In this document: in pieces, positions 4,280 to 14,923 of the stretch
Numbering within the stretch: position 1 is the first letter of the stretch
Layout of the letters: the number at the start of each line of letters is the position of its first letter
Source of the DNA: Pseudaquabacterium terrae
GTDB lineage: Bacteria; Pseudomonadota; Gammaproteobacteria; Burkholderiales; Burkholderiaceae_C
Length of the DNA stretch: 64,000 bases
Direction: 5' to 3'
Assembly (NCBI RefSeq): GCF_013266755.1
Contig: NZ_JABRWJ010000008.1
Span: 1-64,000, forward strand
The notes under the pieces: model-generated
Told to the model about the DNA's origin: nothing
What the model saw: the letters and a program-made list of their open reading frames with translations, nothing else
The model's database searches: none
Program-made: the position numbers and the translations under genes

Positions 4280-4927
4280 ATGCCCCTCAAGACCCAAGCC
4301 GCGCCGCCCGACGCGGGGCCGACCGCCGACGACGCCACGTCAGCGCGGCGCGATCAAATCCTCGACGCCGCGCTGGCGCTGATGGAGGAGCACGGCTACC
4401 GCGACACGACCATGCTGCAGATCGCGACACGCGCGCGGGCGTCGAAGAACACGCTCTACCAGCACTTCCCGACCAAGCAGGCGCTGTTCGCTGCGCTGGT
4501 GGCGCGCGCGGCGGCGGCGATGAATGCCGACATCGTCGCGGCGCTCGATGGCAACGCGCCGCTGGAGCCCACGCTGTGCCGCTTCGGCACGCACCTGCTG
4601 ACGCTGCTGACCGGCGCGCAGTCGCTGGCGATCAACCGCGCGGCGATCGCCGAAGCGCGTTTCGCGCCCGAGTTGGCCCAAGCGCTGGCGGCCAACGGCC
4701 GCGAGAACACGGCGCCGCTGGTGCAGCGCTACTTCGCCCGGCAGATCGCCGCGGGCCGGATGCGCGCGGTCGATGGCGCCGACGCGATCGAGAGCTTCAT
4801 CGGCCTGCTGATCGGCGACCTGCAGGTGCGGCTGCTCTGGGGCATCGCGCAGCCGCCCGATCAAGCGGCCATCCGCCGCCGCGCGCAGCGGGCGGCGGAA
4901 CGCTTCGTCGTGTTGTTTGGCGCCTAG
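4280..4927 (+). CDS. TetR/AcrR family transcriptional repressor
   Basis: A 215-aa regulator. The N-terminal helix-turn-helix covers about residues 24-70, with a recognition part reading KNTLYQHFPTKQALFAALV. The C-terminal part is all-helical and resembles the TetR C-terminal domains that sense hydrophobic ligands. It is transcribed away from the DUF6544/IorAB operon, and the two palindromes in the gap are its obvious targets. It probably represses the oxidoreductase operon and itself until an inducer, perhaps the substrate, binds. The ATG at 4280 places the DNA-binding domain normally, after a flexible N-terminus of about 20 residues. Confidence 0.92.
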   Translation: MPLKTQAAPPDAGPTADDATSARRDQILDAALALMEEHGYRDTTMLQIATRARASKNTLYQHFPTKQALFAALVARAAAAMNADIVAALDGNAPLEPTLCRFGTHLLTLLTGAQSLAINRAAIAEARFAPELAQALAANGRENTAPLVQRYFARQIAAGRMRAVDGADAIESFIGLLIGDLQVRLLWGIAQPPDQAAIRRRAQRAAERFVVLFGA

Positions 4928-4962
4928 GGCCACCCCGACCGCAGCCACGCCCGAGCGTGGCC

Positions 4963-4975
4963 TTGCGCACAGACG
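4963..4975 (+). promoter_or_regulatory. Conserved upstream motif YTGCGYACAGACG, copy 1
   Basis: TTGCGCACAGACG lies 59 bp before the start at 5022. A near-identical element (CTGCGTACAGACG) lies 60 bp before the paralogous gene at 14495. The same position and sequence at two paralogues suggest a promoter element or regulator site. Confidence 0.5.
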
Positions 4976-5021
4976 GGGGCGGCCAGCGGGTGCAGATTGT
5001 TCGGACAACCAGGAGGTCGCC

Positions 5022-5435
5022 ATGACCAGGAAGCACCGCACCACGCCCAGCGAGCGCTCGTACGCCGCCGCCGAGGACAGGTTCACTTCCCTGGGTGGCC
5101 GCCCTTCGTCCGCGCGGCCCGAGCTCGCGATGGCGGAGTTCGGCATCGGCTACGACGGCCTGCAGTACGAGTACCACGGCTACCGCTACGACCGGCTCGA
5201 GGAGGCCGTCGCCTACGCCGGCCTGGTCCGGTCGCGGCCGACCCAGCTCGATGCCGGCGGCCCGTTCCGCCAGATCAGGACCCTGGCCGTGCCGACCGAC
5301 GCCCAACGCGCGCTGATGGCAACGCTGGGCATCGAATTCGCCGACGGCGCATTCCGGTTCGCGGGCTTTCGCTATGAAAGCCTGGCCGATGCCGTGAACT
5401 ACGCGAAATTGACGCGCTCCTTTCAGACGCTATGA
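5022..5435 (+). CDS. Conserved small protein of unknown function, paralogue A
   Basis: A 137-aa soluble protein with a strong ribosome site (AGGAGG at 5011-5016). It has two similar halves. The first has YEYHGYRYDRLEEAVAYAGL, and the second has FRFAGFRYESLADAVNYAKL. These repeated G[YF]RY-(D/E)-L-A-A-YA units suggest an internal duplication. I do not recognise a named family. A clear paralogue at 14495-14923 has the same two-unit layout (RYRYHGYQYDRFADAVAYA and YRFEEFRYDRMADAVSYAKL), the same upstream motif at the same distance, and also neighbours a Crp/Fnr gene. A regulatory or stress role under Crp/Fnr control is a hypothesis. It overlaps the convergent gene at 5430 by 6 nt. Confidence 0.8.
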   Translation: MTRKHRTTPSERSYAAAEDRFTSLGGRPSSARPELAMAEFGIGYDGLQYEYHGYRYDRLEEAVAYAGLVRSRPTQLDAGGPFRQIRTLAVPTDAQRALMATLGIEFADGAFRFAGFRYESLADAVNYAKLTRSFQTL

Positions 5436-5774: not shown

Positions 5775-5790
5775 TGTGCGCTTGCGCACA
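5775..5790. promoter_or_regulatory. 16-bp palindrome (7-2-7), candidate Crp/Fnr-type operator
   Basis: TGTGCGC-TT-GCGCACA is a perfect palindrome between the divergent genes at 5741 and 5828. It has the same geometry and the same central CGC-TT-GCG as the palindrome at 11902-11917. Confidence 0.55.
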
Positions 5791-5827
5791 AGCAGGGTGC
5801 TGCGTGCGCTGCCGCACCAAAGGCGCG

Positions 5828-6571
5828 ATGCCGCTGCCTATACTGGCCACCATGGACTCCGGCCCCGATCCGCGCGGAAACCAGCTGCTCGCCGCGCTGC
5901 CGGCGGCCGAGTGGGGCCGCTGGCTGCCGTCGCTGGAAGCGGTCGACATGCCGCTGGGCAAGGTGCTGTACGAATCCGGCATGGCGATGACCCACGTGTA
6001 CTTCCCGACCACGTCCATCGTGTCGCTGCTGTACGTGATGGAGGATGGCGCGTCGGCCGAGATCGCCGTGGTCGGCAACGAGGGCCTCGTCGGCATCGCG
6101 TTGTTCATGGGCGGCGAAACCACGCCCAGCCGCTCGGTCGTGCAAAGTGCGGGCAAGGGCTTTCGCATGCCCGGCCACCTGCTCAAGGCGGAATTCAACC
6201 GCTCCGGTCCGGTGCTGCACCTGCTGCTGCGCTACACGCAGGCGCTGATCACGCAGATGGCGCAGACGGCGGTGTGCAACCGGCACCACTCGCTGGACCA
6301 GCAGCTGTGCCGCTGGCTGCTGCTGAGCCTGGATCGCCTGGACGCCACCGAGCTGGTGATGACGCAGGAGCTGATCGCCAACATGCTCGGCGTGCGCCGC
6401 GAAGGCGTGACCGAGGCCGCCTCGAACCTGCAGCGCGCCGGGCTGATCCACTACCGGCGCGGCCACATCACGGTGCTGGATCGGCCGGGCCTCGAGCAGC
6501 GCACCTGCGAGTGCTATGCGGTGGTCAAGAAGGAATACGACCGCCTGCTGCCGTTGCAGCCGGCCGCCTAG
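5828..6571 (+). CDS. Crp/Fnr family transcriptional regulator 1
   Basis: A regulator of up to 247 aa. An N-terminal cyclic-nucleotide-binding-like beta-barrel contains VLYESGMAMTHVYFPTTSIVSLLYV and AEIAVVGNEGLVGIALFMGG. A C-terminal winged helix holds ELIANMLGVRREGVTEAASNL as the recognition region. There is no Fnr-type cysteine cluster and no conserved cAMP-binding arginine set that I can see. This matches the large Burkholderiales subgroup with LxYE-G-x-HVYFPT barrels whose signal is unknown. The start at 5828 has a weak AAAGG site; an ATG at 5852 is possible, with a TATACT sequence 7 nt before it. It is homologous to the regulator at 13666-14358. Confidence 0.88.
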   Translation: MPLPILATMDSGPDPRGNQLLAALPAAEWGRWLPSLEAVDMPLGKVLYESGMAMTHVYFPTTSIVSLLYVMEDGASAEIAVVGNEGLVGIALFMGGETTPSRSVVQSAGKGFRMPGHLLKAEFNRSGPVLHLLLRYTQALITQMAQTAVCNRHHSLDQQLCRWLLLSLDRLDATELVMTQELIANMLGVRREGVTEAASNLQRAGLIHYRRGHITVLDRPGLEQRTCECYAVVKKEYDRLLPLQPAA

Positions 6572-7278: not shown

Positions 7279-8337
7279 GTGGTGTCGCCTGATCGCGAGT
7301 TGACGCGCCCGCTGCTGGGCGTGCTCTTTCTCGGGGCGCTGATCGTCGCCTCGTTCTGGATCCTGCGGCCGTTCCTGGCCCCCGCGATCTGGGCGGCGAT
7401 GATCGTCGTCGCGACCTGGCCGGCGATGCTCTGGCTGCAGGCCAGTCTGTGGCGCCGCCGCAGCCTGGCGGTCGCGGCAATGACGGTGATCCTGATGCTG
7501 GTGTTCGTCGTGCCGCTGGTGCTGGCCGTCGGCACGATCGTGTCGAACGCCGACGAGATCGGGGAGCGGCTGAAGTCGTTTTCCGCCTTTCGCATGCCGC
7601 CGGCGCCCGAGTGGCTGGCCGACCTGCCGTTCATCGGCCCGATGCTCGTGCAGGCCTGGCAGCAGGCTGCCGCCGCCGGCGTCGAAGGCCTGGCGGCGAG
7701 GCTGCTGCCCTACGCCGGCAGCCTGACGAAGTGGTTCGTCGCCGAGGCCGGCCAGTTCGGCTTCCTGTTCGTGCAGTTCCTGCTCACGCTGATCCTCTCG
7801 GCGCTGATGTACGCGCGCGGCGAAGTGGCGGCGTCGGCGGTGCAGCGCTTCGCCCTGCGCCTGGCCGGCGAGCGCGGCGAGCATGCGGTGCAGCTGGCCG
7901 GCCAGGCGATTCGCAGCGTGGCGCTCGGCGTGGTGCTGACGGCGGTGGTGCAGTCCACCCTGGGTGCGATCGGGCTGGCCATCACCGGCGTGCCCTTCGC
8001 CGCCCTGCTGGCCGCGGTGATGCTGCTGCTGTGCATCGCGCAGATCGGGCCCTCGCCGGTGCTGGTGCCGGCGGTGATCTGGCTCTACTGGAGCGGCGAG
8101 ACGGCCTGGGGCACGCTGCTGCTGGTGATATCGGTCGTAGTGGTGACGATGGACAACGTGCTGCGCCCGATCCTGATCCGGCGCGGCGCCGACCTGCCGC
8201 TGCTGCTGATCTTCGCCGGCGTGATCGGCGGGCTGCTCGGCTTCGGCCTGGTCGGCATCTTCGTCGGGCCGGTCGTGCTGGCCATCGCCTACACGCTGCT
8301 CAAGGCGTGGATCGAGGAGCGGGCACCGGAAGCGTGA
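7279..8337 (+). CDS. AI-2E family transporter (PerM/YdiK-like permease)
   Basis: A 352-aa polytopic inner-membrane protein with about seven or eight hydrophobic segments, starting at GTG 7279. Pairs of N-terminal helices (LGVLFLGALIVASFWIL; AAMIVVATWPAML) are followed by a soluble stretch and C-terminal helices ending GIFVGPVVLAIAYTLLKAWI. This matches the UPF0118/AI-2E exporter family. Family members are credited with export of autoinducer-2, cations or other small molecules, so the substrate is uncertain. The 3' end overlaps the convergent GGDEF-kinase gene by 38 bp. Confidence 0.88.
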   Translation: MVSPDRELTRPLLGVLFLGALIVASFWILRPFLAPAIWAAMIVVATWPAMLWLQASLWRRRSLAVAAMTVILMLVFVVPLVLAVGTIVSNADEIGERLKSFSAFRMPPAPEWLADLPFIGPMLVQAWQQAAAAGVEGLAARLLPYAGSLTKWFVAEAGQFGFLFVQFLLTLILSALMYARGEVAASAVQRFALRLAGERGEHAVQLAGQAIRSVALGVVLTAVVQSTLGAIGLAITGVPFAALLAAVMLLLCIAQIGPSPVLVPAVIWLYWSGETAWGTLLLVISVVVVTMDNVLRPILIRRGADLPLLLIFAGVIGGLLGFGLVGIFVGPVVLAIAYTLLKAWIEERAPEA

Positions 8338-9934
8338 CGACGAAGCGGCTGCCGAAGCCGCTGCCGGCGCTGCTGGCGATGACGCCGCCGCCGTGCGCCT
8401 CGACCAGCTCGCGCACCACCGTGAGCCCGATGCCGAGCCCGGCGCCATTGAAGCCGACGGCGTGCCGGTCCTGCACGAAGGGCTCGAAGATCCGGGGCAG
8501 CGCCTCGGCGCTGATGCCGATGCCGTTGTCCGACACCGTGATGGCGATTTCTTCCAGCGCCGCCTGCACCGACAGGCCGATCTCGCCACCGACCGGCGTG
8601 TACTTCGACGCGTTGTCGAGCAGGTTGCACAGCACCTGCGTCAGGCGCACCGGGTCGCCATCGACCCGCAGCGCGCCGGCGGGCACGAAAACGTCGAAGT
8701 GCTGCAGCCGCGCATCCATCGCCGGCCGGCAGGCCTGCACGGCCGCGTCGATCAGCACGGCCAGGTCGACCGCCTGGCGCTCGAGGCGCAACTTGCCGGT
8801 GTGCGAGCGCGACACGTCCAGCAGATCGGCCACCAGCCGCGTCATGTGGACCACCTGCCGTTCGATGACACCCTGCACGAAGTGCAGCAGCGGCTCGTCG
8901 GCACGGCCCCGCCCCAGCAGCGCCGCCGCGGTGAGGATCGGCGCCAGCGGCGTGCGCAGCTCGTGCGCCACCACCGCCAGGATTTCCGCCTGCCGCGCGT
9001 GCGCCTGCTCGGCTGCGGCCTGCAGCTGCTGCGCGCTAAGCGCCGCCAGCACCAGGTTCTGATTGGCCTCCTGCAGCTGAACGCGCTGCTGCGCATGCTC
9101 GGCACGGGCCTGCTGATACGGCGCCAGCGGCTGGTGCAGCGAGCGCAGCGCCGCCGGCGCGAGGTCCGGCGCGCCGGCCACGTCCTCGTGCCCGAAGACG
9201 AAGCTGCGCAGCCCGAGCCGCTTGGCGCGGTACATCGCCGCGTCGGCCCGCTCGATCAGCGTGTCGGCATCATCGCCGTCGTCCGGGTAGAGGCTGATGC
9301 CGATGCTGGCGGTCAGCCGGATCACCTGGTCGCCGACGCGGCTCGGTGCGCCGAGCGCCGCGCACAGCTTGTCGGCGGTGGCGATCGCATCACAGGCCTG
9401 GGTCACTTCGGCAAGCAGGATCACGAACTCGTCGCCGCCGTGGCGACTGACGGTATCGACGGCGCGCACCGTCGATGCCAGGCGCGTGGCGGCCAGCCGC
9501 AGCACCTGATCGCCCACTGCATGGCCGAGCGTGTCGTTGATCTGCTTGAAGTTGTTCAGGTCCAGGAACAGCAGCGCCGACTGCGTGCCGCGCCGCTTCG
9601 CGCCGGCGATGGCCTGCGCCAGCCGATCGAGCAGCAGCAGGCGATTCGGCAGCCCCGTCAGCGCATCGAGCTCCGACGATCGCGAGGCCTCCTTCAAGGC
9701 CAGCGCGGCCGCCTCGGCGGCGGTGTCGGCATCCGTCTGCACGCGCAGCGCCGACACCACCAGCCGCTCGTTGGCCTCCAGCAGCTGGGCCGCGGCGCGG
9801 CTGCCGAGCAGGCTTTCCGCCGCGACCACGTCGGCCCGCAAGCGCGCCAGCTCGGCGTGCGCCTCTCCGATTGCCCGGCGCAGCTCGGCCAGCTCGCGCG
9901 TGGCGCTGTCGCCGGGATCGAAGGACGCATTCAC
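8300..9934 (-). CDS. Cytosolic hybrid: GGDEF diguanylate cyclase domain fused to a histidine kinase
   Basis: A 544-aa protein without transmembrane segments. Residues about 1-85 are helical and probably coiled coil. A GGDEF domain follows (ALTGLPNR near 91; active-site GGDEF at 166-170 with an intact RxxD inhibitory site at 157-160). A helical linker rich in Q/A (about 270-320) leads to a HisKA dimerisation helix with phospho-acceptor H324 (VVAHELRTP). The HATPase domain has N box NLLDNASKY and G boxes DNGIG and GAGLGIGL. The order GGDEF then kinase is unusual. It is the last gene of an operon, 9 nt after the KaiC-like gene, and has no receiver domain of its own. Both activities look intact. 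Confidence 0.9.
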   Translation of the reverse strand: MNASFDPGDSATRELAELRRAIGEAHAELARLRADVVAAESLLGSRAAAQLLEANERLVVSALRVQTDADTAAEAAALALKEASRSSELDALTGLPNRLLLLDRLAQAIAGAKRRGTQSALLFLDLNNFKQINDTLGHAVGDQVLRLAATRLASTVRAVDTVSRHGGDEFVILLAEVTQACDAIATADKLCAALGAPSRVGDQVIRLTASIGISLYPDDGDDADTLIERADAAMYRAKRLGLRSFVFGHEDVAGAPDLAPAALRSLHQPLAPYQQARAEHAQQRVQLQEANQNLVLAALSAQQLQAAAEQAHARQAEILAVVAHELRTPLAPILTAAALLGRGRADEPLLHFVQGVIERQVVHMTRLVADLLDVSRSHTGKLRLERQAVDLAVLIDAAVQACRPAMDARLQHFDVFVPAGALRVDGDPVRLTQVLCNLLDNASKYTPVGGEIGLSVQAALEEIAITVSDNGIGISAEALPRIFEPFVQDRHAVGFNGAGLGIGLTVVRELVEAHGGGVIASSAGSGFGSRFVVTLPVPAPRSTP

Positions 9935-9943
9935 GGCATCGCC

Positions 9944-11434
9944 TCAGCCGTCGTCGGCGCCGCCGGGCGTGCGCAGCGGCGCGCCGGCCGGCTTGCGGGT
10001 CGGCCGCCCGCCGAGCAGGCCCTCCTGGTCGGTCAGCCGCTCGCCGATCCGAATGCCGTCGGCGTCGATGCTGAACAGGCGCAGCTCGTCCGAATGCGCG
10101 CTGGCGCGCACCTTGACGACGGCCATCACGCGCAGCAGCCGGCTGTCGACCTCGATGTAGCGCTGCACGATGATCGCGTCGGTCAGGAAGGCCGTGCCGT
10201 AGGGGCTGAAGCGCAGGTCGGTGTAGCGGTCTTCCAGCTCGGAGGTCATCAGCACCGTGACGCCGGCGGCGGCCAGCGCGGTGACCAGGCGCGACAGCGA
10301 TTCGCGGAAGTCCTCGCGAAACGTCGGCGCCAGCGCCAGCTCGAAGCCCGACAGCGAATCGATGACCACGCGGCTGGCCTGCAGGCGCCGGATCTCGGTG
10401 AGCAGCAGCTGCACGATCTCGTCGATCGACAGATCGGGCGCGCGGCTGTCGACCAGCCCGACGCGTCCGCTGTCGATCAGCTCGGCCAGGATCCTGTTGC
10501 GCGATCGGCGCGGGTGCGGCTCGAAGACGGCGACCACGCCGGTCTCGCCGCAACGCGCGCCCTCGGCGAGGAAGGACGCGGCCAGGATGCTCTTGCCCGA
10601 CCCCGACGGTCCGGCCACCAGCACCGAATAACCTTGCGGCACGCCCCCGCCGAGCATCTGATCGAGCGGCGCCACGCCGGTCAGCAGCCGGGCATCGGCG
10701 GGTGCGGCAGCGACCGCGGCGACGTCGGCCTCCTGGCCGGCGGGCGCGAACACCTCGACCCCGGCGCTGCCGATGCGAAACGTGTGCAGCCCCGGCAGCG
10801 TCGGCTGGCCGCGCATCTTCATGATCTCCATCTTGCGGACCATCGAGTTGCGCTGCACGCTCTGGCGCAGCCAGATCAGGCCGTCGGCCACCGTGAACAC
10901 CGGGTTGGCGTCGCTGTCGGTGAAGTACTCGCCGATCAGGAAGGTGGTGGCCTGCCAGCTGGTCATCAGCATGCCCAGCTGCTGCACGAACTGCTGCAGG
11001 TCGTTGTGCGGGTTGCCGCCAGCCGTGCTGGCGAGCACCACGGAGCGGAAGGAGTCGACGAAGACCAGGCCGGGCCCGTGCGCCTCGACCTCGGTGACGA
11101 TGCGGCTCAACACCTTGTCGAGATCACCCTCCTGGGTCTCGTCGGCCAGGTTGATGAAGCGCACCGAGCGGTTGATGGCCTCGCTGTCGAAGAAGTGAAA
11201 CTGCTGCTGGTAGCGCAGCATCTTCAGCGGCGGTTCGCCGAGCACGGTGAAGTACAGCGCCGGCCGCTCCGGCGTCGCCAGCGCAAACATCATCTGGTGG
11301 GCCAGCGTGGTCTTGCCGCTGCCCGGCGTTCCGGCGATCAGGTTGAACGAGAACTCGGGCAGACCGCCGCCCAGCACCGCGTCCAGTCCCGGCACGCCGG
11401 TGGCGAGGCGGTTGATGGTTACTTTGGATGTCAT
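9944..11434 (-). CDS. KaiC-like double-domain ATPase (RecA/RadA-type)
   Basis: A 496-aa protein with two tandem KaiC domains. Domain 1 begins RLATGVPGLDAVLGGGLPE with Walker A GTPGSGKTT near residue 35. Domain 2 begins LTGVAPLDQMLGGGVPQG with Walker A GPSGSGKS near 275. By eye, the KaiC Ser-Thr autophosphorylation pair before the conserved T-D-x-I segment is not present (GTAFLTDAIIV), and one of the second-domain catalytic glutamates is replaced (FEPHPRR). It is therefore a KaiC homologue and probably not a clock oscillator. The ATG at 11434 overlaps the preceding stop by ATGA, and the GGDEF-kinase follows 9 nt later, so the three products probably work together. The C-terminal tail is proline/glycine rich. 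Confidence 0.88.
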   Translation of the reverse strand: MTSKVTINRLATGVPGLDAVLGGGLPEFSFNLIAGTPGSGKTTLAHQMMFALATPERPALYFTVLGEPPLKMLRYQQQFHFFDSEAINRSVRFINLADETQEGDLDKVLSRIVTEVEAHGPGLVFVDSFRSVVLASTAGGNPHNDLQQFVQQLGMLMTSWQATTFLIGEYFTDSDANPVFTVADGLIWLRQSVQRNSMVRKMEIMKMRGQPTLPGLHTFRIGSAGVEVFAPAGQEADVAAVAAAPADARLLTGVAPLDQMLGGGVPQGYSVLVAGPSGSGKSILAASFLAEGARCGETGVVAVFEPHPRRSRNRILAELIDSGRVGLVDSRAPDLSIDEIVQLLLTEIRRLQASRVVIDSLSGFELALAPTFREDFRESLSRLVTALAAAGVTVLMTSELEDRYTDLRFSPYGTAFLTDAIIVQRYIEVDSRLLRVMAVVKVRASAHSDELRLFSIDADGIRIGERLTDQEGLLGGRPTRKPAGAPLRTPGGADDG

Positions 11435-11859
11435 CGGATGCTGTCCTGTGCGGGCGGGCCGCTCGAAGAGTCTGCCCACAGCGGGCGCAGCAGGCGCTCG
11501 GTGAGCGACAGCCCGATCAGGCTGCCGAGCAACTTGTGAAACGTCAGCAACAAGGTGTTGCCGCCTTGCACGGCCTCGTCGCCGCTCTGCTGCGAGACGA
11601 CCGACCGCAGCGCGATGAGATCGATCGCGGCCGTACTGCCCTCGTGCATGCCGGCCAGCCACGGGTGGGCGGGCGCGCTGAGGTACAGGCTGCGCTTGTA
11701 GAGCGCAGCGACGCCGCGGCCGCCGATGATGGGCGTCAGGGCCGCGTCGATCTGCTGCCATGTCGCCACCAGCGCGTCGGCCACCTGCGCAGCAGTCGCA
11801 CCGCTGCCCACCCTGCCGGCCAGGGGCGCTGCGGTGTCACTGATCTGGGGGCGTTCCAT
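11431..11859 (-). CDS. Small protein of unknown function at the head of the KaiC-like operon
   Basis: A 142-aa soluble, mostly helical protein that I do not recognise. Visible segments are ADALVATWQQIDAALTPIIGG, an ALYKRSLYLSAP stretch and a C-terminal LLTFHKLLGSLIGLSLTERLL helix. Its stop overlaps the start of the KaiC-like gene by 4 nt, so it is translated together with that ATPase and the GGDEF-kinase. It has no KaiB-like thioredoxin fold signature. By position it could be an adaptor or sensor for the ATPase. A 16-bp palindrome lies 43 bp upstream. Confidence 0.75.
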   Translation of the reverse strand: MERPQISDTAAPLAGRVGSGATAAQVADALVATWQQIDAALTPIIGGRGVAALYKRSLYLSAPAHPWLAGMHEGSTAAIDLIALRSVVSQQSGDEAVQGGNTLLLTFHKLLGSLIGLSLTERLLRPLWADSSSGPPAQDSIR

Positions 11860-11901
11860 GCGGAGGGGCCTCGCGTTGCGCGTTCGCTGGGGCCGCCCGA
11901 T

Positions 11902-11917
11902 CGTACGCTTGCGTACG
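11902..11917. promoter_or_regulatory. 16-bp palindrome (7-2-7) before the KaiC-like operon
   Basis: CGTACGC-TT-GCGTACG is perfect and sits 43 bp before the first gene of the KaiC-like operon. It shares its core with the palindrome at 5775-5790 next to Crp/Fnr gene 1, so the same regulator may bind both. Confidence 0.55.
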
Positions 11918-12269: not shown

Positions 12270-13664
12270 TCACAGCCAGTGCTCCCACAGCCGCGCAAAC
12301 AACTCCTTCACGCGCCATTCGAGCGGGCGGCGCTCCCACTGCGCCAGCGTGACGGCATCGGACGCAGCCAGGTCGCGCTCGAACATCGCCTGCAACTGGC
12401 TGCCGAATCCGGTGCCCACGACCACCGCGTCCAGCTCGTGGTTGTGAAGGAAGCTGCGCCAGTCGAGGTTGGTCGATCCGACCGTGGCCCATACGCCGTC
12501 GACCAGCGCGGTCTTGGAGTGCAGGATCACGCCGCGCCGCTCGTGGATCTTCACGCCCGCGCGCAGCAGGCGGGCGTAGTAGCCGCGCCCGGCATGGAAG
12601 ACGAGCCAGGAGTCGGTCTGGCCGGGCAGGATCAGCACCACCTGGACGCCGCGCGCAGCGGCCGCCTCGAGCGCGGTGAGCAGCTGCGGGTCGGGCACGA
12701 AGTACGCGTTGGTCAGGTGCACGCTGGTCTGCGCGCTGCCGATGGCCGACAGCAGCGTGACGTAGATCAGGCTGTAGGCGTCGTCGGGCGAGCTGCCGAT
12801 GGCGCGTACCACCTCGGTGCCGGTGGACTGCACGGGCGGAAAGTGGTTGGCCCCGGTCAGCGGCGCGTCGCTCTGCGAGGCCCAGGTCGCGAGGAACAGC
12901 TTCTGCAGCTCGGCCACCACCGGGCCGCGCAGCCGCAGGTCGGTGTCGCGCCACGCCAGGCGGGCGTCGGGCGCGGTGCGCGCGCTCGGGCGCCGCGAGC
13001 CGCCGGAATGCACGCTGCTGATGTTGATGCCGCCCAGGAAAGCAGTGTGGCCGTCGACGATCAGCAGCTTGCGGTGATCGCGCTGGTTCAGCTCCCAGGC
13101 GTTGTCCGTGGCCAACGGGTTGATCGGGTTGAACTCGAGCATGCGGATGCCGGCCGCCGCCATCTGCTCGAAGAAGGCCGTCGGCGTGCCGATCGTGCCG
13201 ACGCTGTCGCGGATGATGCGGACCTGCACGCCCTGGCGCTGCTTGTCGGTCAGCACCTGCGCAAAGCGCTGGCCCACCTCGTCGTCGTCGAAGATGTAGG
13301 TCTCCATGTGGATGTGATCGCGGGCGGCTGCGATGGACGCGTACATTGCAAGGTATGTACTCGGCCCGTCCTGCAGCAGCAGCACCTGGTTGCCGGTGGT
13401 CAGCGGGCTGCCGACGATGGCCTGCTCGAGCGCCAGGTGGTGCTCGAAGATGCCGGTCGGCTGACCGTGGCTGCCCAGGCGCGCGAGCACCGCCTTGCTC
13501 TGGCTCGCCGACAGCGGACCGTGCGCTGCTGCGAGCTGCACCGGTGGGCCCGCGCGGCGGGCCAGGTCGGGCACGAAGGTCGGCAGGCTGCCGCAGCTGG
13601 CCAGCCAGAGCAGGGCGCCGGCCAGCAGGAGGCCGACCTTGCGCGACCGCGCACCAGCGGACAT
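12270..13664 (-). CDS. Phospholipase D / cardiolipin synthase family lipoprotein
   Basis: A 464-aa protein with a lipoprotein signal peptide: hydrophobic helix then lipobox LASC, with lipidation at Cys24. Two HKD motifs are present, HRKLLIVDGHTAFLGGIN in the first half and HSKTALVDGVWATVGSTNLD in the second, giving a complete PLD active site. Spacing and the C-terminal DLAASDAVTLAQWERRPLEWRVKELFARL resemble ClsB/ClsC-type cardiolipin synthases, which join phosphatidyl groups from phosphatidylglycerol or phosphatidylethanolamine. It follows the Crp/Fnr 2 gene after a single nucleotide and is probably co-transcribed with it, which would tie membrane lipid composition to that regulator. Confidence 0.88.
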   Translation of the reverse strand: MSAGARSRKVGLLLAGALLWLASCGSLPTFVPDLARRAGPPVQLAAAHGPLSASQSKAVLARLGSHGQPTGIFEHHLALEQAIVGSPLTTGNQVLLLQDGPSTYLAMYASIAAARDHIHMETYIFDDDEVGQRFAQVLTDKQRQGVQVRIIRDSVGTIGTPTAFFEQMAAAGIRMLEFNPINPLATDNAWELNQRDHRKLLIVDGHTAFLGGINISSVHSGGSRRPSARTAPDARLAWRDTDLRLRGPVVAELQKLFLATWASQSDAPLTGANHFPPVQSTGTEVVRAIGSSPDDAYSLIYVTLLSAIGSAQTSVHLTNAYFVPDPQLLTALEAAAARGVQVVLILPGQTDSWLVFHAGRGYYARLLRAGVKIHERRGVILHSKTALVDGVWATVGSTNLDWRSFLHNHELDAVVVGTGFGSQLQAMFERDLAASDAVTLAQWERRPLEWRVKELFARLWEHWL

Positions 13665-13665
13665 C

Positions 13666-14358
13666 TCAGCCCACCGTCGCGTCGTAGGTCCGGCGATCGG
13701 TGGCGTAGCAGCTGCAGGCCGCCGCTTCCAGGCCGACGCGATCGAGCACCGTGATGTTGCCGCGGTGGTAATGGATCAGGCCGTTGCGCTGCAGTGTGCC
13801 GGCGGCGCCGGTGATGCCGACGCGGCGCACGCCCAGCATGTGGGCCAGGAACTCGTGCGTCAGGTGAAAGCTGTCGGAGTGCGCTCGATCCTGCGTCATC
13901 AGCAGCCAGCGGGCGAGCCGCGGCTCGACCTGGTGAAAACGCGTGCAGGCGGCCGACGTCGCCAGCTGGCTCATCAGCACGTAGACGTAGCGCGTCAACA
14001 CCTGCTGCATCGCCGGGCTCGCGGCCAGCGCGCTGCAGAACGGCGTGGCCGCGATGCGCAGCGCGCTGCCCGCGCCCTGCACCAGCGCATGCAGCGGCAC
14101 CGCGCTGACCCCGAGCGTGAGCTGCGTGCCGAGCATGCCTTCGCGGCCGACCATGCCGACCTCGATGCTCGGCTCACCGGCACCGCCGGTCACCAGCGAG
14201 ATGAAGCAGTCATCGGGAAAGTAGACATGGGTCGTCGTGTCGCCCGGCTCGCCCAGCACGGTCCCGAGCGCCAGCTGCACCGACTCGCCGGCGGCCATCA
14301 GGGCCTGGCGGTCCCGCGGGTGCAACTGGGCAATGAGGGCGTTCTTGGCAGCGGCCAT
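13666..14358 (-). CDS. Crp/Fnr family transcriptional regulator 2
   Basis: A 230-aa regulator starting MAAAKNALIAQLHPRDRQ. The N-terminal barrel carries VLGEPGDTTTHVYFPDDCFISLVTGG and EVGMVGREGMLGTQLTLG. The C-terminal helix-turn-helix has EFLAHMLGVRRVGITGAAGTL. It belongs to the same subgroup as the regulator at 5828-6571, without the Fnr cysteines. An upstream in-frame extension to 14493 runs through the divergent promoter and is rejected. It heads an operon with the cardiolipin-synthase-like gene and is divergent from small-protein paralogue B, across a gap with a 16-bp palindrome. Confidence 0.9.
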   Translation of the reverse strand: MAAAKNALIAQLHPRDRQALMAAGESVQLALGTVLGEPGDTTTHVYFPDDCFISLVTGGAGEPSIEVGMVGREGMLGTQLTLGVSAVPLHALVQGAGSALRIAATPFCSALAASPAMQQVLTRYVYVLMSQLATSAACTRFHQVEPRLARWLLMTQDRAHSDSFHLTHEFLAHMLGVRRVGITGAAGTLQRNGLIHYHRGNITVLDRVGLEAAACSCYATDRRTYDATVG

Positions 14359-14414
14359 GCCGGCGAGTGTGGGTGCGGCCTGTCCGCCCGACCGTCTGCC
14401 ACCGCACAGAGTCG

Positions 14415-14430
14415 ACGGTGGCACCACCGT
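14415..14430. promoter_or_regulatory. 16-bp palindrome (7-2-7) between Crp/Fnr 2 and paralogue B
   Basis: ACGGTGG-CA-CCACCGT is a perfect palindrome in the divergent gap 14359-14494. The geometry equals that of the palindromes at 5775 and 11902, but the arm sequence differs, so it may be the site of a different regulator, perhaps Crp/Fnr 2 itself. Confidence 0.45.
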
Positions 14431-14434
14431 GGGC

Positions 14435-14447
14435 CTGCGTACAGACG
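14435..14447 (+). promoter_or_regulatory. Conserved upstream motif YTGCGYACAGACG, copy 2
   Basis: CTGCGTACAGACG lies 60 bp before the start at 14495. It matches the element 59 bp before the paralogous gene at 5022 in 11 of 13 positions. Confidence 0.5.
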
Positions 14448-14494
14448 CGGCGGGCCTGCCGGTCCACGGTGCAGGCACATCCCGAGGAGCCACG

Positions 14495-14923
14495 ATGACC
14501 CCATTGCCCCGCTCGACGACCGAAGCGCGTCAGGACGCCGCTGCCGAAGATGCGTTCACCTCCGAAGGCGGCAGCCCGCCGCCGGAGGAGCTGGAACGCG
14601 AGCGCCAGATGGCCGAGTTCCGCATCGACCACGACGGCATTCGCTACCGCTACCACGGCTACCAGTACGACCGGTTCGCCGACGCCGTCGCGTATGCGCG
14701 CCTGATGCGATCGCGGCCCGCGCAGCTCGACGGGGGCGGTCCGCACCTGACGGCGCGGACCTTCCTGCCGCCGACCGACGCGCAGCGATCGTTGCTGGCA
14801 GCGCTGGACATTCGCTACGACGCCGGCACCTACCGGTTCGAGGAATTCCGCTACGACCGGATGGCCGATGCCGTGAGTTATGCGAAGCTGGCGCCGCGAC
14901 GCCAAGGCGGCGAGGGCAGCTGA
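14495..14923 (+). CDS. Conserved small protein of unknown function, paralogue B
   Basis: A 142-aa soluble protein with a GAGGAG ribosome site 6 nt before the ATG. An acidic/proline N-terminus leads to two related units: MAEFRIDHDGIRYRYHGYQY then FADAVAYARL, and later RFEEFRYDRMADAVSYAKL. It is clearly homologous over its length to the product of 5022-5435, including the PTDAQR-x-L-(M/L)-A-x-L-x-I linker between the units. It is divergent from Crp/Fnr 2 and converges on fliH, leaving 17 bp. Function unknown. Confidence 0.82.
   Translation: MTPLPRSTTEARQDAAAEDAFTSEGGSPPPEELERERQMAEFRIDHDGIRYRYHGYQYDRFADAVAYARLMRSRPAQLDGGGPHLTARTFLPPTDAQRSLLAALDIRYDAGTYRFEEFRYDRMADAVSYAKLAPRRQGGEGS

What the first reader, a model, noticed from the sequence alone, without database searches (positions are those of the whole stretch)
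8300..11917. KaiC-like ATPase in an operon with a cytosolic GGDEF-histidine kinase and an unknown small protein
Three genes with 4-nt overlap and 9-nt spacing encode a 142-aa unknown protein, a double-domain KaiC homologue that seems to lack the clock phosphorylation residues, and a soluble protein joining an intact GGDEF domain (with RxxD inhibitory site) to a complete histidine kinase. There is no KaiB, KaiA or receiver gene. The layout suggests a signalling module in which a RecA-like ATPase controls c-di-GMP synthesis and/or phosphotransfer. A palindrome just upstream links it to the Crp/Fnr genes. I know of no described system with this exact composition.
Basis: partly seen in the sequence, partly recalled or inferred. 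Interest (0 to 1): 0.7.

Follow-up and report, generated by a model that had tools for sequence, protein, structure and literature searches.

The report
Widespread KaiC, adaptor and kinase/cyclase module
A KaiC-type ATPase lacking the clock phosphorylation sites travels, in many soil and water bacteria, with an undescribed small helical protein and a swappable kinase or cyclic-di-GMP enzyme, which points to a widespread signalling module that is probably not a daily clock.

Summary
The three genes are real and as described: small protein (142 aa), double-domain KaiC without the clock phosphosites, GGDEF-histidine kinase. They form a conserved module. A small-protein homologue lies directly upstream of kaiC in 80 of 80 named loci found by KaiC alone (the closest of 570 confirmed; Pseudomonas, Xanthomonadales, Burkholderiales), 77 with a possible 4-nt overlap. 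Conversely 37 of 40 loci found by the small protein have this KaiC clade next door. The small protein matched no Pfam, NCBIfam or PDB family, is not KaiB by profile comparison, and is predicted all-helical. The third protein changes type (kinase, GGDEF, or GGDEF between two copies of a helix motif, the 'EAN box') 10-14 times on the KaiC tree; that motif is nearly confined to genomes with the small protein (21 of 25, against 2 of about 373). Best reading, unproven: a KaiC ring senses ATP state and acts, through the small adaptor, on an exchangeable output enzyme. KaiC genes near kinase or GGDEF genes were described in 2011; I did not find the small family or the EAN box in the open papers searched.

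The parts
11431..11859 (-). small all-helical protein, 142 aa, proposed adaptor; member of an undescribed family
   Evidence: ORF; no Pfam/NCBIfam, no PDB sequence hit at E 1; AF2 mean pLDDT 84.2, pTM 0.77, helices only; 80 of 80 named KaiC loci have a homologue upstream
9944..11434 (-). double-domain KaiC-type ATPase, 496 aa, Walker A Lys and Walker B Asp kept in both halves, clock phosphosites absent
8300..9934 (-). output enzyme: EAN box - GGDEF - EAN box - HisKA - HATPase_c, 544 aa, GTG start
9737..9784 (-). EAN box copy 1 (aa 51-66, LLEANERLVVSALRVQ)
9029..9076 (-). EAN box copy 2 (aa 287-302, LQEANQNLVLAALSAQ)
9212..9670 (-). GGDEF domain (aa 89-241) with intact GGDEF and RxxD, lying between the two EAN boxes
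8321..8992 (-). HisKA (aa 315-379) and HATPase_c (aa 426-538); acceptor His in AHELR
11443..11449 (-). probable Shine-Dalgarno of kaiC inside the end of the small gene; codes part of the conserved PAQD tail
   Evidence: read from sequence; tail conservation; inference
11902..11917 (.). palindrome CGTACGCTTGCGTACG, 44 nt upstream of the small gene, candidate Crp/Fnr site
5775..5790 (.). related palindrome TGTGCGCTTGCGCACA just upstream of the Crp/Fnr gene
5804..6571 (+). Crp/Fnr-type regulator ('crp1'), frequent fourth component of the module
   Evidence: HTH_Crp_2
13666..14493 (-). second Crp/Fnr-type regulator ('crp2'); true start probably near 14358 (inference)

Best explanation
A signalling module with a constant core and an exchangeable output. 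Shown: the small protein and this KaiC clade are encoded together, mostly with overlapping genes, and the neighbouring output protein carries the EAN-box helix and is a kinase, a cyclase or both. Inferred: KaiC forms a ring whose nucleotide state (ATP/ADP or another input) sets its shape; the small helical protein binds the ring and the EAN-box helices of the output protein, and so switches the histidine kinase and, where present, the diguanylate cyclase. Where the kinase has lost its His, output would be c-di-GMP alone, perhaps read by the neighbouring Crp/Fnr protein, which may also bind the palindromes before the module and before its own gene. It is not a KaiABC-type phosphorylation clock.
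For: Reciprocal co-occurrence: 80 of 80 named loci found by KaiC have the small gene, 77 of 80 with a start codon giving a 4-nt overlap (starts were picked as nearest to -4). 9 of 200 order genomes have this KaiC clade at E <= 1e-100 and all 9 are in the small-gene list. Of 40 small-gene loci examined, 37 have the KaiC next door. EAN box at E <= 0.05: 13 of 13 genomes with small and 0 of 21 without; at E <= 0.001 in the order sample 21 of 25 against 2 of about 373 (Fisher 7e-29). GGDEF lies between two EAN boxes in the window protein and aligned examples. Adaptor role: G039 and G530 (completeness 100) have small + EAN-box partner but no KaiC of this clade; G440 has small + KaiC and no EAN hit, so the small protein is the common element. 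Output type changes 14 times on the KaiC tree, 10 when four truncated or fragmentary rows are left out. Of 43 GGDEF-HK fusions 27 keep both sites, 14 lost only the His, 2 lost only GGDEF, none lost both (4 fusions are second copies of one genome). Phosphosites absent. Crp: all 3 crp1-like genes (E <= 1e-20) of this genome lie at its two modules; within about 12 kb in 8 of 13 module genomes (read).
Against: No binding, ATPase, kinase or cyclase data. No complex model could be made and the fold search never ran. Adjacency does not prove contact. The EAN-box profile was trained on module proteins, and two of the 13 family genomes have only weak hits (E 0.007 and 0.026). G039 carries another KaiC-like gene about 15 kb from its small gene, so 'without KaiC' holds only for this clade. 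Crp1-like genes also occur in 8 of 21 genomes without the module, and only 5 of 45 Pseudomonas-group loci have a Crp gene of this kind nearby. His loss and Crp adjacency coincide but in few lineages; the paired test gives p = 1. One kinase-only protein (L118) has Tyr at the His position. Two named loci (L123, L126) lack a kinase or GGDEF gene next door. The input signal is unknown.
Confidence: 0.5

Rival explanations
1. A rudimentary timer: KaiC works as an hourglass or damped clock by ATPase cycling, with the small protein in place of KaiB and the HK in place of SasA.
For: KaiC plus HK without kaiB was proposed as an hourglass in Ramlibacter (PMC3164672, passages); a partner protein and an HK parallel KaiB/SasA in layout.
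Against: S431/T432 positions are A and F in the window; none of 37 clade members has S or T at both. The 2011 authors judged KaiC unable to phosphorylate two residues unlikely to sustain a cycle. The same genome has a separate kaiC with two kaiB matches. Small protein is not KaiB by profile and is predicted all-helical, unlike KaiB's thioredoxin-like fold (recalled).
Confidence: 0.1
2. The small protein is the sensor (binds a ligand or membrane partner) and KaiC is its downstream actuator that remodels the EAN-box enzyme; ATP state is only fuel.
For: Small protein evolves fast (54 and 58% identity to the paralogue and the congener) while KaiC stays at 94 and 84%, as a sensor or specificity part might; confident helical bundle.
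Against: No known ligand-binding family; most conserved residues are in helices 2, 5 and 6, many of them Leu, Gly, Ala and Arg, which fits packing or protein contact as well. The kaiC paralogue pair may be kept alike by gene conversion.
Confidence: 0.25
3. KaiC and the small protein form a pair with a function of their own (for example nucleic-acid or stress related); kinase and cyclase neighbours are merely co-regulated.
For: G440 (L088) has small-kaiC without an EAN partner; two named Pseudomonas loci (L123, L126) have no kinase or GGDEF gene next door.
Against: EAN-box proteins are almost confined to genomes with the small gene, and pairs of small + EAN protein exist without this KaiC clade.
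Confidence: 0.1

Closest known systems
KaiC-HK loci without kaiB ('second' and 'third' kaiC contexts of Ramlibacter and others, PMC3164672)
   Same: double KaiC followed by a histidine kinase or near GGDEF/EAL or receiver proteins; third group mostly lacks one or both phosphosites (passages)
   Different: the passages I read name no upstream small family and no EAN box (a figure legend allows unnamed 'hypothetical proteins'; the figures are not held); the second context has a SasA/KaiB-like HK N-terminus and keeps phosphosites. The own genome holds a KaiC + HK-receiver locus without a small homologue (L009)
Cyanobacterial KaiABC-SasA clock
   Same: KaiC double ATPase, partner protein and HK output
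   Different: no phosphosites, no KaiB at the locus, partner predicted all-helical, GGDEF output
BcsE of cellulose secretion (PMC7439463)
   Same: joins a KaiC/RecA-like domain with a GGDEF-like domain (passages)
   Different: BcsE's ATPase motifs are degenerate and it is one chain; here Walker residues and GGDEF are intact and in separate proteins
CRP/FNR-family c-di-GMP receptors Bcam1349 and CLP (PMC3584217, PMC10519070)
   Same: a Crp/Fnr-type regulator near a c-di-GMP enzyme is a plausible receptor (passages)
   Different: binding of c-di-GMP by crp1 is untested; no sequence comparison with these two was made

Membership tests
KaiC ATPase family | two tandem KaiC/RecA-like domains with Walker A and B | tested here: met
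   PF06745 E 1.8e-64, two stretches; K41, D127, K281, D359 invariant in 16 sequences
KaiC circadian clock protein (equivalog) | S431/T432 phosphosites; equivalog score | tested here: not met
   A and F at these positions; 130 bits against the TIGR02655 cut-off of 546.25
KaiABC clock | KaiB partner at the locus | tested here: not met
   both KaiB matches of the genome are on contig C2, none on C55
KaiABC clock | KaiA partner | not tested
   no KaiA search was made
KaiB | KaiB sequence profile | tested here: not met
   hhalign of 52 small proteins with one own KaiB protein: probability 0.06%; no KaiB match in Pfam
Active diguanylate cyclase | GGDEF domain with intact signature | tested here: met
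   activity itself not testable here
Active histidine kinase | H box with His, N and G boxes | tested here: met
   AHELR, NLLDNASKYT, DNGIGI, GLGIGL in the window protein; activity not testable; box names recalled
c-di-GMP-responsive Crp/Fnr regulator | binds c-di-GMP | not testable with these tools
   only family level shown

The most novel reading that the evidence does not exclude
The small protein founds a new class of KaiC adaptor: a plug that couples a non-clock KaiC ring to any enzyme carrying EAN-box helices, so that bacteria swap kinases and cyclases in and out under one ATP-sensing hub.
Probability: 0.4. Interest if true: 0.8.

Novelty: new variant of a known kind. Interest (0 to 1): 0.62.

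Why it matters
Many non-cyanobacteria have KaiC proteins of unknown role. Here is a common form, present in tractable Pseudomonas, with a nearly constant undescribed partner and a defined output enzyme. It makes the question of what KaiC does outside clocks directly testable, and offers a natural set of swaps between phosphotransfer and c-di-GMP outputs under one controller.

Tried and rejected
Rejected: small protein = KaiB or another known family. Rejected: GGDEF as the defining part. Rejected as proof: association of His loss with an adjacent Crp gene; 8 of 12 distinct His-less GGDEF-HK loci have it directly downstream (read from coordinates) but they fall in few lineages. Conserved C-terminal PAQD of the small protein as a docking peptide: set aside, since it overlaps the probable kaiC ribosome-binding site. 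Defence system: PADLOC gave only partial matches (best mad8, E 9e-12 over 58 residues of KaiC). The alignment of the small family could not be used for the named genome scan, and the single window protein confirmed nothing there, so KaiC was used. Paper searches; the paper by Makarova and others on archaeal KaiC hubs (recalled) is not held. An I-site regex was wrong and reported none; the printed residues show RxxD in all 30 listed proteins, and I used those.
Full report
Observation. The window holds, on the minus strand, a 142-aa gene, kaiC and a GGDEF-histidine kinase gene with a 4-nt overlap and a 9-nt gap. KaiC matches solved clock KaiC at modest score, with S/A/F at the positions recalled as T426/S431/T432; among 37 KaiC proteins of the clade 30 read SAF, 2 SSF and 5 otherwise, none with S or T at both of the last two. 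The window lies in an 8.04-Mb genome; the nearest named relative by KaiC is Aquabacterium humicola (84%).

Other KaiC genes in this genome. There are four double KaiC genes: a kaiC with two kaiB matches (C2), a kaiC with a kinase-receiver hybrid (C55:91-95 kb), the window module, and a second copy of the module at C1:359-361 kb with its own small gene, a kinase and a Crp gene. Between the two module copies, kaiC DNA is 92-100% identical in 13 of 14 bins of 100 nt (0.87 with a gap in the other), and identity falls to 0.42-0.73 in and before the small gene and to 0.62-0.67 at the start of the third gene, rising to 0.63-0.86 in the kinase part. This suggests gene conversion of kaiC. The second copy's kinase lacks the GGDEF domain, as a gap relative to the window gene.

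Is it a module? Searching by the small protein, 13 of 150 family genomes, 25 of 399 order genomes and 4 of 398 phylum genomes have it; these samples overlap. I examined 40 loci: the window, its paralogue, the 12 others and 26 that cover the new hits. KaiC of this clade lies directly downstream in 37. The misses are L034, L074 (contig edge) and L085. In the 36 besides the window the gene gap is -4 in 21 and -8 in 8, by my choice of start codons. All 80 have a small gene upstream, 77 with a start codon that gives a 4-nt overlap (I picked the start nearest to -4); 76 of 80 have a kinase or GGDEF gene next, 2 end at a contig edge and 2 (L123, L126) have none. In 200 order genomes 9 carry this KaiC clade at E <= 1e-100 and all 9 appear in the small-gene list.

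The small protein. None of 52 members gives a meaningful Pfam match (at most 2 members share one, best E 0.03; best single match 0.0039). No PDB sequence matches at E 1 and profile comparison with one of the genome's own KaiB proteins is negative. AlphaFold2 on 52 sequences gives mean pLDDT 84.2 and pTM 0.77: six helices, one of 39 residues, with loose ends. Columns conserved in 85% or more of sequences lie mostly in helices 2, 5 and 6. The fold library search could not be run.

The output protein. Third-gene proteins share an N-terminal helix motif, roughly [LM]x[EQ][AV]NxxLVxAxxxAQ, which I call the EAN box. By a regular expression 61 of 77 (76 named and the window) have two copies, 13 one, 2 three and 1 none. 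Most aligned Pseudomonas kinases carry two copies in tandem; in aligned GGDEF-HK proteins, the window's included, the GGDEF domain sits between the two. Of the genome search partners, L036 and L091 fail the pattern but show a diverged form. A 32-position profile finds the motif in 13 of 13 genomes with the small gene and 0 of 21 without at E <= 0.05; two of the 13 are weak (0.007, 0.026). In the order sample it is found in 23 of 398 genomes at E <= 0.001; 21 of these are among the 25 with small (Fisher). The two others are G346, where the gene ends a short contig, and G319, a weaker hit in a 1246-aa protein. The four small-bearing genomes without a hit are G020, G175 (contig edge), G287 (the diverged L091) and G440. 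The profile was trained on module proteins. Genome G090 has two further hits outside its module.

Which part is the hinge? G039 and G530 have small + EAN protein but no KaiC of this clade; G039 has other KaiC-like genes, one about 15 kb from its small gene. G440 has small + KaiC, no partner beside it and no EAN hit. The small protein is thus the common element, the main ground for calling it an adaptor.

Swapping of outputs. Among 113 third proteins (five genomes were fetched twice; some proteins are cut by contig ends): 43 GGDEF-HK (27 with both sites, 14 with GGDEF but no His, 2 with His but degenerate GGDEF, none without both), 59 HK without GGDEF (57 with His; L095 is a fragment, L118 has Tyr), 11 GGDEF without HK. 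On a quick KaiC tree of 71 rows the type changes 14 times, or 10 times without four truncated or fragmentary rows; His loss changes 3 and Crp adjacency 4 times, and the His/Crp link is not independent (sign test p = 1). 30 Pseudomonas rows were left out of this tree.

Crp/Fnr as a fourth part. Crp1- or crp2-like genes lie directly downstream on the same strand in 5 of 80 named loci and elsewhere in 13 more. In five genomes there are 11 crp1-like genes at E <= 1e-20: all 3 of this genome, 2 of 3, 1 of 1 and 1 of 1 lie at modules, and 0 of 3 in G030. They occur in 13 of 13 module genomes and 8 of 21 others (Fisher 2e-4), and within about 12 kb of the module in 8 of 13. Crp/Fnr proteins that bind c-di-GMP are known (passages); whether crp1 does is unknown.

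The palindrome. The pattern GTNCGCNNGCGNAC, chosen after seeing the window sites, lies within 350 nt upstream of the small gene in 7 of 82 loci (window and paralogue included) against about 0.1 expected from base composition; for the 80 named loci alone it is 5 against 0.36 by locus density. All are Burkholderiales by record title and two are Paucibacter; 75 of 82 loci lack it. A narrower form occurs 20 times in the genome against 10 for the reversed control, so most genomic copies need not be sites, and the plain pattern search in the window alone is not significant.

Literature. Searches of open papers (listings, with passages of a few papers) showed no description of the small family or of this three-gene unit; KaiC beside HK or GGDEF genes is described in PMC3164672 (passages). 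Most subscription papers are not in that library.

Verdict. A real, widespread, little-described signalling module; its mechanism is inferred only.

Noticed in passing
window 9944-11434 and L010 5287-6774: kaiC paralogues 92-100% identical in DNA in 13 of 14 bins, with sharp drops at both ends: looks like gene conversion.
   Followed up: partly
window 4917-5432 (+) and 14237-14920 (+); L094 about 12738-13151: Two homologous proteins (true length perhaps 136-140 aa) with an internal repeat around Y-x-GYxYDR, each beside a Crp/Fnr gene; no Pfam match. The A. humicola copy has the palindrome just upstream.
   Followed up: no
L087 5183-5458 and 7883-8110: Small gene split by an insertion of about 2.4 kb holding a 619-aa ORF; kaiC and HK remain open.
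   Followed up: no
L109, L141, L147, L152, L153, L154, L156, L170, L173, L068, L070, L073: GGDEF-HK proteins whose acceptor His is N, A, E, D or R while GGDEF stays intact.
   Followed up: partly
L161 2913-5586: Degenerate GGDEF in the fusion followed by a second separate GGDEF gene that may take over.
   Followed up: no
L090 (G020): Module KaiC shows one TGA inside the frame and the small gene is a partial match; possibly decaying.
   Followed up: no
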